Source of the DNA: Propionibacteriales bacterium
GTDB lineage: Bacteria > Actinomycetota > Actinomycetes > Propionibacteriales > Nocardioidaceae
NCBI GenBank assembly: GCA_026392465.1
Contig: JAPLCA010000030.1
Coordinates: forward strand, 388,820-452,819
Reading direction: 5' to 3'
DNA: 64,000 nt
The notes beneath the pieces are model-generated. The model ran no database searches. It worked only from the letters and a program-made list of their open reading frames with translations, and had not been told where the DNA came from. This document shows positions 19,138 to 20,342 of the stretch, piece after piece (position 1 is the first letter of the stretch; every line of letters starts with the position of its first letter). Position numbers and translations under genes: made by a program.

Positions 19138-19189
19138 GGCGTCATCCTCCCAGACGCCCCTCCCCTCCCCGCTGAGTGTGACGCCCCCT

Positions 19190-19258
19190 CCCCGCTGAGT
19201 GTGACGTTTGCGGGCCGAGATCCGGAAGATCGGCCCGCAAACGTCACGCTCAGCGGGG
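19190..19258. repeat. Palindromic element, left copy (CCCCGCTGAGTGTGACGTTTGCGGG family)
   Basis: 29-nt arms 19190-19218 / 19230-19258 with one mismatch; extra half-copy ctccccgctgagtgtgacg just upstream (about 19165-19183). Confidence 0.93.
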
Positions 19259-19306
19259 TGTGGACGGGCGGATGACCGCCCGCCCCGTCGACGCGACGGT
19301 GATGCC

Positions 19307-20275
19307 ATGCACGCACGTCGCACCGCGCACCACCTCCGGGCGGGCCTCACCCCCGACGTGGCCCGGGGGCCGACGATGGAACGCCGGGCCCACGGCCTGC
19401 TGCGACCGACCGGTCTCGATGCTCCCGCGCACGTCCAACGGGTCGACGACGCCGTCGGGCTCCTCCTTCCCGGCACCGCCCTCGGCGGCTGGGCCTCGTT
19501 GTTCCTCCAGGGCAACGACTGGTTCGACGGGTGGGCCGGCGACGGGGTGCGACCTGCGCTGGTCCACTGCTCGCCCGGCACCCAGCTGCGCCGTCGCGAC
19601 GGGATCGAGCCGTTCCGTGGACGGGTCCTGCCCGAGGAGCTCACGACGGTCGACGTCGGGGAGCGCATCGACACCACGACCCTCGCTCGAGCCGTCTTCG
19701 ACGAGGCCAGGACGGCACCGGACCTGCGCGCCGCCGTGGTCGCGCTCGACATGGCGGTCAGCAGCACCCACCGCCTGCCCCGCACCACGCTGGACGCCGT
19801 GCGGCGGGTCGAGGCCCGTCACGTCAAGGTCCGCGGAGTCGTGCAGGTCCGCAAGGCCCTGCTCCTCGCGTCGGAGCGCTCCGCCAGCCCCGCCGAGACC
19901 CGCACCCGACTGGTCGCGCAGCTCGACGCGGGGCTGACCGGCCTGCGCGTGAACGCGCCGCTCTTCGACCTGGACGGTGCACTGCTCGGGGTCGCCGACC
20001 TCGTCGAGCCGGGCACCGGGCTCGTCATCGAGACCGACGGGGCTGGGCACCGCGAGATCGAGCAGCACACGCTCGACAACCGCCGGGAGGAGTCCTTCGA
20101 GCGCGCCGGGTGCGTGGTGGTGCGGGCCACGGCCCTCGACCATCGCGACCGGTGGGCGCTGAGCGCACGCATCGTCCGAGCGCAGCTCGACGCGACCAGG
20201 ACGTCTCGACGTCGCTGGACGCTCGACCCTCCCCCGTGGTGGTCCACCTGGCCCGGTGCTCGACCCTGGCTCTGA
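19307..20275 (+). CDS. Protein with C-terminal DUF559/PD-(D/E)XK-like nuclease region and AbiEi-like N-terminal region
   Basis: LFDLDGALLGVADLVEPGTGLVIETDGAGHREIEQHTLDNRREESFERAGCVVVRATALDHRDR resembles DUF559 cores; start taken at ATG 19307. Confidence 0.75.
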   Translation: MHARRTAHHLRAGLTPDVARGPTMERRAHGLLRPTGLDAPAHVQRVDDAVGLLLPGTALGGWASLFLQGNDWFDGWAGDGVRPALVHCSPGTQLRRRDGIEPFRGRVLPEELTTVDVGERIDTTTLARAVFDEARTAPDLRAAVVALDMAVSSTHRLPRTTLDAVRRVEARHVKVRGVVQVRKALLLASERSASPAETRTRLVAQLDAGLTGLRVNAPLFDLDGALLGVADLVEPGTGLVIETDGAGHREIEQHTLDNRREESFERAGCVVVRATALDHRDRWALSARIVRAQLDATRTSRRRWTLDPPPWWSTWPGARPWL

Positions 20276-20342
20276 CCCGCTGAGTGTGACGTTTGCGGGC
20301 TACGAAGGGCTCAACTACCCCGCAAACGTCACACTCAGCGGG
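20276..20342. repeat. Palindromic element, right copy (same family as 19190-19258)
   Basis: 24-nt perfect arms cccgctgagtgtgacgtttgcggg 20276-20299 and its reverse complement 20319-20342; begins at the base after the TGA stop. Confidence 0.95.

What the first reader, a model, noticed from the sequence alone, without database searches (positions are those of the whole stretch)
19165..20342. DUF559/PD-(D/E)XK-like nuclease gene bracketed by two copies of one palindrome: candidate REP-associated nuclease cassette
Seen: a long palindrome (ccccgctgagtgtgacgtttgcggg... arms, 29 nt) lies 48 nt before the ATG of the 19307-20275 gene. A second copy with 24-nt perfect arms begins at the base after its stop codon. 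A third half-copy (ctccccgctgagtgtgacg) abuts the left one. The left copy sits between two divergently transcribed genes, so it is not easily a terminator. Known: RAYT transposases are REP-flanked single-copy genes thought to disperse REP palindromes. Inference: a PD-(D/E)XK-type protein may play an analogous role, or recognise and maintain the TGACGTTTGCGGG palindrome as a host element. I am not aware of a described DUF559-linked palindrome system, but I could not check.
Basis: partly seen in the sequence, partly recalled or inferred. Interest (0 to 1): 0.85.

Follow-up and report, generated by a model that had tools for sequence, protein, structure and literature searches.

The report
Nuclease gene with its own palindromes
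A bacterial gene for a predicted DNA-cutting enzyme sits between two copies of a long DNA palindrome scattered through the genome, and in dozens of related bacteria the same kind of gene is framed by a different palindrome matching that genome's own scattered copies, which suggests an undescribed gene-and-repeat partnership built on an unrelated enzyme but resembling the REP/RAYT system.

Summary
An AbiEi-like/DUF559 nuclease gene (19307-20275) lies between two 67-69 bp palindromes (19190-19258, 20276-20342), in an Aeromicrobium genome that holds about 20 dispersed copies. Comparison makes it general: of 70 homologues from the same family, 65 have such a palindrome within about 260 nt of an end (43 on both sides). 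Palindrome density is about 108 per 38 kb near the gene against 4 per 152 kb further away. Arm sequence is lineage-specific and changes on both sides together; dispersed copies match their own genome's cassette far more often than chance. The cassette has flipped at its site, is missing cleanly from that site in one relative, and sits elsewhere there. Catalytic residues are invariant; the model shows an AbiEi antitoxin fold fused to a Vsr/homing-endonuclease-like fold. Anatomy and behaviour resemble REPIN-RAYT, but the RAYT-defining HUH transposase domain was not met. No description was found in the open-access literature. Binding, cutting and copying are inferred. Exceptions exist: four genomes have palindromes without a cognate gene found, and five homologues lack palindromes. 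I rate it a new kind of system, convergent with REPIN-RAYT.

The parts
19164..19183 (.). half-copy (TCCCCGCTGAGTGTGACG...), a remnant of the palindrome arm
   Evidence: family D1, pairs I4 and I6; also present in the two sister genomes
19190..19258 (.). left palindrome, 69 bp, 29-nt arms with one mismatch, 11-nt centre; also lies in the promoter region shared by two divergent genes
19307..20275 (+). AbiEi-like plus DUF559 (PD-(D/E)XK/Vsr-like) protein, 322 aa; invariant E197, D231, E242, D244, D257
20276..20342 (.). right palindrome, 67 bp, perfect 24-nt arms, begins right after the stop codon
17911..19139 (-). left neighbour, aminotransferase-like gene (one side of cassette site A)
   Evidence: name from reading the translation
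20376..21317 (-). right neighbour, RluD-like pseudouridine synthase gene (other side of site A)
   Evidence: name from reading the translation

Best explanation
The block is a gene-plus-palindromes unit: one gene for a fused DNA-binding/nuclease protein, bracketed by two copies of a 57-69 bp palindrome that also exists as 5-35 dispersed copies in the same genome. Shown here: the anatomy, the dispersal, the pairing of each gene with its own palindrome type, co-variation of the two arms, inversion of the cassette at its site, and its absence from or presence at other sites. Inferred: the N-terminal AbiEi-like winged-helix part binds palindrome half-sites, with the upstream copy doubling as an operator; the C-terminal Vsr/homing-endonuclease-like part cuts or nicks the palindrome, perhaps when extruded as a hairpin or cruciform; repair then copies sequence from another palindrome. 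This would homogenise all copies in a genome to the resident type, keep both arms complementary, occasionally seed a new intergenic copy, and occasionally move or flip the gene with its two palindromes. It would thus work like REPIN-RAYT with an unrelated enzyme.
For: Flanking palindromes at 65 of 70 family homologues, 43 on both sides; 108 per 37.8 kb near against 4 per 151.6 kb far. Beyond the family, 16 of 28 homologues have one or more, 7 have both, and none fell in 46 kb of far flank. Palindrome type is specific: GTGACGTT, CCTGACGTTTCTG and TAGTCCG types each occur dispersed, in 52, in 3 tested, and in 42 genomes, with zero reversed-pattern controls. Of 81 dispersed copies, 42.4 best match their own genome's cassette against about 2.2 expected among 37 genomes (59 including sister species). 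Genomes with two cassettes have two types. Inner arms co-vary: Watson-Crick 0.87 observed against 0.50 shuffled, maximum 0.57 in 1000 shuffles. At orthologous sites the inner 31 nt are 73-76% identical while flanks are 92-93%. Site A is occupied in both orientations; the inverted G158a groups with the forward G000/G122, and G139 (a different site) is nested there with support 100/97 and has an empty site A with 38 nt between the neighbours. Motif residues are invariant in 55 proteins. Fold: AbiEi 6y8q E = 2e-5, and weaker matches to homing endonuclease I-Bth0305I. AbiEi antitoxins bind inverted repeats to autoregulate (PMC7319586).
Against: No binding, cutting or movement was measured. Positions of dispersed copies are mostly stable between sister species (about 14-15 of 17 shared), so new insertions are rare; only one own-genome copy (L017) is clearly missing in both relatives, and that site there holds other repeat DNA. 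G133 (6 copies), G104 (3), G172 (16, genome 58% complete) and G010 (35) have palindromes without a cognate flanked gene found. G131 shows only its two cassette copies with the pattern used. Faster change of palindromes than flanks could partly reflect intergenic against coding sequence. Genomes are related, so p-values overstate.
Confidence: 0.55

Rival explanations
1. Operator/terminator reading: the palindromes are binding sites or bidirectional terminators. The AbiEi-like domain regulates its own gene and a regulon of about 20 sites; the nuclease domain acts on something else and nothing is copied.
For: AbiEi antitoxins autoregulate through inverted repeats (PMC7319586). Own-genome copies are intergenic and often at gene ends: 8 convergent, 7 tandem, 2 divergent by an automatic ORF call.
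Against: A second copy downstream of the gene is not needed for an operator. Arms and loops are rewritten at the same site while complementarity is kept, the cassette inverts and relocates with both copies, and there is no U-run. Copies next to orthologous genes differ between genera.
Confidence: 0.2
2. Homing parasite of host palindromes: the palindromes are older host elements, and the nuclease gene is a homing endonuclease that inserts at palindromic sites, so it adapts to whatever palindrome the host has.
For: The nuclease part resembles homing endonuclease I-Bth0305I. Site B is occupied by two distant gene lineages in different genomes, as if a fixed docking place were reused. Some genomes have palindromes but no cognate gene.
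Against: Homing normally splits one target, whereas here two whole copies remain. Most genus genomes without the gene also lack the palindromes (24 of 26 below 4 copies), and two cassettes in one genome each have their own type.
Confidence: 0.17
3. Defence module: an AbiE-derived nuclease that attacks invading DNA, with palindromes as self-marks or decoys.
For: AbiEi-like fold and weak PADLOC AbiEi match.
Against: No AbiEii toxin partner is seen beside it; the neighbours are housekeeping genes; no phage match and only one weak match in the plasmid collection; dispersed co-evolving copies are unexplained.
Confidence: 0.05
4. Chance neighbourhood of ordinary hairpins and an ordinary gene.
For: Long inverted repeats do occur at gene ends.
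Against: About 100-fold enrichment near the gene, pairs of matching copies, zero reversed-pattern controls.
Confidence: 0.01

Closest known systems
REPIN-RAYT (REP elements with the Y1 HUH REP-associated tyrosine transposase)
   Same: A single-copy gene flanked by palindromes that are dispersed between genes; palindrome type specific to the gene; mostly stable chromosomal residence (RAYT features from PMC8049555 and PMC3733652).
   Different: The enzyme is PD-(D/E)XK/Vsr-like with an AbiEi-like domain, and no Y1_Tnp was found in this genome. Palindromes are 57-69 bp of fixed length, not 20-40 bp with a GTAG tag; copies number 5-35 rather than about 100-300.
CGTC-tagged REPs without a known transposase (PMC3733652)
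   Same: Dispersed intergenic palindromes containing CGTC, reported to lack a dedicated enzyme.
   Different: Those are short with 4-5 nt loops and an unpaired CGTC tag, reported from five phyla that do not include Actinobacteria; here the sequence lies inside the stem, and a flanking enzyme gene exists.
AbiEi antitoxins of type IV AbiE systems
   Same: Fold of the N-terminal two thirds (6y8q); AbiEi binds inverted repeats (PMC7319586).
   Different: No AbiEii toxin gene next to it; fused to a nuclease; palindromes on both sides and genome-wide.
Vsr/EDxHD-type nucleases including homing endonuclease I-Bth0305I
   Same: Fold of the C-terminal domain (3r3p, TM-score by target 0.66-0.67, E = 0.2-0.3, weak).
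   Different: No intron or intein; the gene is framed by two whole palindromes instead of splitting a target gene.

Membership tests
RAYT (REP-associated tyrosine transposase) | Y1 HUH transposase domain (PF01797) | tested here: not met
   Pfam scan of the protein gives only DUF559; no Y1_Tnp in the whole genome
RAYT (REP-associated tyrosine transposase) | single gene flanked by the cognate dispersed palindromes | tested here: met
REP/REPIN | short 20-40 bp stem with unpaired GTAG (or CGTC) end tag | tested here: not met
   57-69 bp, fixed span, no unpaired tag seen
DUF559 (PF04480) | profile match above the curated cut-off | tested here: inconclusive
   single protein 16.6 bits against cut-off 20.6; several homologues carry PF04480
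PD-(D/E)XK nuclease | conserved acidic catalytic residues in the fold | tested here: met
   E197, D231, E242, D244 invariant in 55 proteins; fold matches to Vsr-like nucleases
PD-(D/E)XK nuclease | metal-dependent DNA cleavage | not testable with these tools
   needs an in vitro assay
AbiEi antitoxin | AbiEi fold | tested here: met
   6y8q E = 2.1e-5, probability 1.00; PADLOC AbiEi E = 0.0046
AbiEi antitoxin | cognate AbiEii nucleotidyltransferase gene next to it | tested here: not met
   neighbours are an aminotransferase-like and an RluD-like gene
Homing endonuclease gene | insertion inside and splitting of its recognition site | tested here: not met
   two whole palindromes flank the gene; the empty site in G139 shows no palindrome

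The most novel reading that the evidence does not exclude
A large actinobacterial class of AbiEi-DUF559 nucleases each rules its own family of dispersed palindromes: it recognises, cuts and rewrites them by repair-based copying, and moves or flips together with a flanking pair, forming a self-maintaining gene-repeat partnership that arose independently of REPIN-RAYT.
Probability: 0.45. Interest if true: 0.93.

Novelty: categorically new. Interest (0 to 1): 0.87.

Why it matters
If right, an abundant family of 'unknown function' nuclease genes in Actinomycetota acquires a target: each gene's recognition sequence can be read from the DNA next to it. It would be a second, independent case of a chromosomal nuclease living with a population of palindromes, making testable whether such partnerships are parasitic, useful to the host, or both. 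It also gives a ready set of dozens of natural enzyme/palindrome pairs for specificity studies.

Tried and rejected
Rfam: only chance miRNA-hairpin matches below gathering scores. NCBIfam: no family. Y1_Tnp in the genome: none. Plasmid and phage collections: one weak plasmid match, no phage match. Open-access papers: DUF559 with palindromic, repeat or transposase, and Nocardioides REPs, gave nothing on this pairing; subscription journals could not be searched. PDB by sequence: no convincing relative. Simple terminator reading rejected as a full explanation because the left copy lies between divergent genes and the arms are rewritten in place. The strict claim that every palindrome-bearing genome has the gene was rejected because of G133, G104, G172 and G010.

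Full report
WHAT IS THERE. The described block is exactly in place: a 69-bp palindrome (19190-19258), a gene for a 322-aa protein (19307-20275), and a 67-bp palindrome (20276-20342) starting on the base after the stop codon, with a half-copy at 19164-19183. The arm occurs 4 times in the window against 0.01 expected, and no other hairpin in the window comes near them in score. The neighbours are an aminotransferase-like gene, divergent from the nuclease gene, and an RluD-like gene (names read from the translations). The genome is an Aeromicrobium: the closest named relative is Aeromicrobium sp. CnD17-E, 91% protein identity.

THE PALINDROME IS A DISPERSED FAMILY OF FIXED LENGTH. The own genome holds about 20 copies, all with exactly 57 bp between the outer conserved bases of TGAG-YGTGACGTT...AACGTCAC-RCTCA. 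They are almost all intergenic, mostly at gene ends (8 convergent, 7 tandem, 2 divergent, 2 overlapping an automatically called ORF). The outer part is constant. The inner arm varies, and its two sides vary together: over 49 copies from several genomes the Watson-Crick fraction at positions 9-15 is 0.87 against 0.50 after shuffling, maximum 0.57 in 1000 shuffles. A pattern scan of 299 genomes of the family found such palindromes in 52 genomes, 10-35 copies in many, and none with the reversed pattern.

THE GENE AND THE PALINDROME BELONG TOGETHER. In one search many genomes showed one pair of palindromes about 1.08 kb apart; in five of the six I fetched the pair brackets a homologue of the window's protein, and the exception is G083. 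Searching the protein over the same genomes and scanning flanks with a neutral hairpin finder gave: 70 loci, 43 with a palindrome on both sides, 22 on one side, 5 on none; 108 hairpins in 37.8 kb within about 260 nt of the gene against 4 in 151.6 kb further out. The finder knew nothing of the sequence, yet the two flanking copies of a locus usually share their sequence, and this sequence differs between genomes: TTTGCGGG here, TTTGGACGG in G137, TTTCGGCCCC in G069, CGAAGTGGTCG in G158, CCTGACGTTTCTG in G107/G110/G116, GCCGCACGTTTCGGCCC in G031, and GATAGTCCG...-type outer tips in other genera. Genomes that looked negative in the first scan were negative because they use another type: G107, G110 and G116 carry 9, 6 and 10 copies of theirs, and the TAGTCCG type is dispersed in 42 genomes with up to 39 copies. 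Of 81 dispersed copies, 42.4 best match the cassette of their own genome where about 2.2 are expected by chance among 37 genomes, and 59 match own or sister species. Genomes with two cassettes show two types. Within the genus, 18 of 23 genomes with a strong homologue and 2 of 26 without have four or more GTGACGTT palindromes (p = 4e-7; the genomes are related and the thresholds were set after looking, so this is descriptive).

IT REACHES BEYOND THE FAMILY. In a sample of 399 genomes of the phylum, weaker homologues (31-40% identity) in several other families of the same class are also framed: 16 of 28 have at least one palindrome, 7 have two matching ones, and none was found in 46 kb of more distant flank (the 28 include one locus of the own genome). 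Within the own genome, a second DUF559-type gene (contig C36) is framed on both sides by an unrelated palindrome, and a third (C39) on one side.

MOVEMENT AND TURNOVER. Two chromosomal places account for most cassettes in and near the genus: site A (aminotransferase/RluD, this window; 14 genomes) and site B (11 loci; flanked by a PepN-like and an MscS-like gene, read). At both, the cassette occurs in both orientations. In the protein tree the inverted G158a and the relocated G139 fall inside the forward site-A group (support 100/97), and site B holds two distant gene lineages. G139 has a clean empty site A: the window's two flanks (84% and 86% identity) are separated by 38 nt there. Between the own genome and its two nearest relatives, most dispersed copies sit at the same places (14 and 13 of 17 recognised automatically, and at least one more in each by eye), but the inner 31 nt are only 73-76% identical while flanks are 92-93%. 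At one site the whole inner arm has changed from TTTCCGGGG to TTCTGGCCCC with pairing kept (L022 against L211). So insertion is rare, and rewriting in place is common. Part of the rate difference may be intergenic against coding sequence.

THE PROTEIN. Pfam gives DUF559 only below cut-off, but an alignment of 55 homologues has invariant E197, D231, E242, D244 and D257, the layout of a PD-(D/E)XK/Vsr-type site. The AlphaFold model is confident (mean pLDDT 95.6). Its only significant PDB match is the AbiEi antitoxin 6y8q (E = 2e-5); weaker matches include homing endonuclease I-Bth0305I, the Vsr-like NGO0050 and PvuRTs1I, and among viral models DUF559 and Vsr-type nucleases. AbiEi is known to autoregulate by binding inverted repeats (PMC7319586).

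MECHANISM. Shown: pairing of gene and palindrome, specificity of type, concerted change of both arms and of copies within a genome, inversion, relocation, conserved catalytic residues. Inferred: the AbiEi-like part binds palindrome half-sites; the nuclease part cuts them, possibly as hairpins; repair copies from another palindrome, which homogenises the family, keeps symmetry, and occasionally creates a new copy or moves the gene with its pair. Inversion follows naturally from recombination between two palindromes. The main rivals are an operator/terminator role and a homing parasite that adapts to host palindromes.

COMPARISON. REPIN-RAYT is what it works like, but it is not a member: the defining Y1 transposase is absent and the element is longer, of fixed span and without the end tag. 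A 2013 survey states that CGTC-tagged REPs lack a dedicated enzyme and does not mention Actinobacteria or DUF559 (PMC3733652). I found no report of DUF559 linked to dispersed palindromes in open-access papers; subscription literature was not covered, which is the main uncertainty of the novelty rating.

EXCEPTIONS. G133, G104, G172 (58% complete) and G010 carry GTGACGTT palindromes without a cognate flanked gene found. These may be orphans after gene loss, assembly gaps, or evidence for the homing rival. Five of 70 homologues show no palindrome, and G131 shows only its two cassette copies with the pattern used.

Noticed in passing
L298 (own genome, contig C36), hairpins at 1346-1410 and 2396-2452: A second AbiEi-DUF559 homologue in the same genome is framed on both sides by a different palindrome (GATTCGGTACGTCATCGCCC...); whether that type is dispersed was not counted.
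   Followed up: partly
L203/L104 (G019:C1:2231762-2232723): In the close relative G019 the homologue is read in two frames (residues 1-96 and 81-321), so the gene looks frameshifted although 17 palindromes remain: a natural test of decay without the enzyme.
   Followed up: no
cassette and dispersed copies in G107, G110, G116, G119, G056, G086, G074, G008, G044: Many palindrome types with quite different arms share an off-centre core CGACACGCCG / CGGCGTGTCG, usually intact on one side only; it may be a cutting or recognition core.
   Followed up: no
L214 and L233 (sites orthologous to L017), also L234: Where the own genome has a palindrome, two relatives carry another repeat, GGTCGAGTAG...CGTATCGAGACCACC, apparently a separate dispersed repeat family.
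   Followed up: no
L237 (G139, site orthologous to L003): The orthologous intergenic site holds an unrelated palindrome (GCGGTGGATCTGCCACCGTATG...), suggesting replacement of one family by another at the same site.
   Followed up: no
L102, 3879-3925 and 6020-6066 (G083): Two copies 2.1 kb apart with no DUF559 homologue between them; the intervening genes were not examined.
   Followed up: no
L255, L259, L260, L262, L268, L273 (other families of the class): Distant DUF559 genes have matching palindromes overlapping or abutting their start and stop codons, so the arrangement may span the class.
   Followed up: partly
G010 (35 copies) and G172 (16 copies): Palindrome-rich genomes with no cognate flanked gene found; unexplained.
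   Followed up: partly
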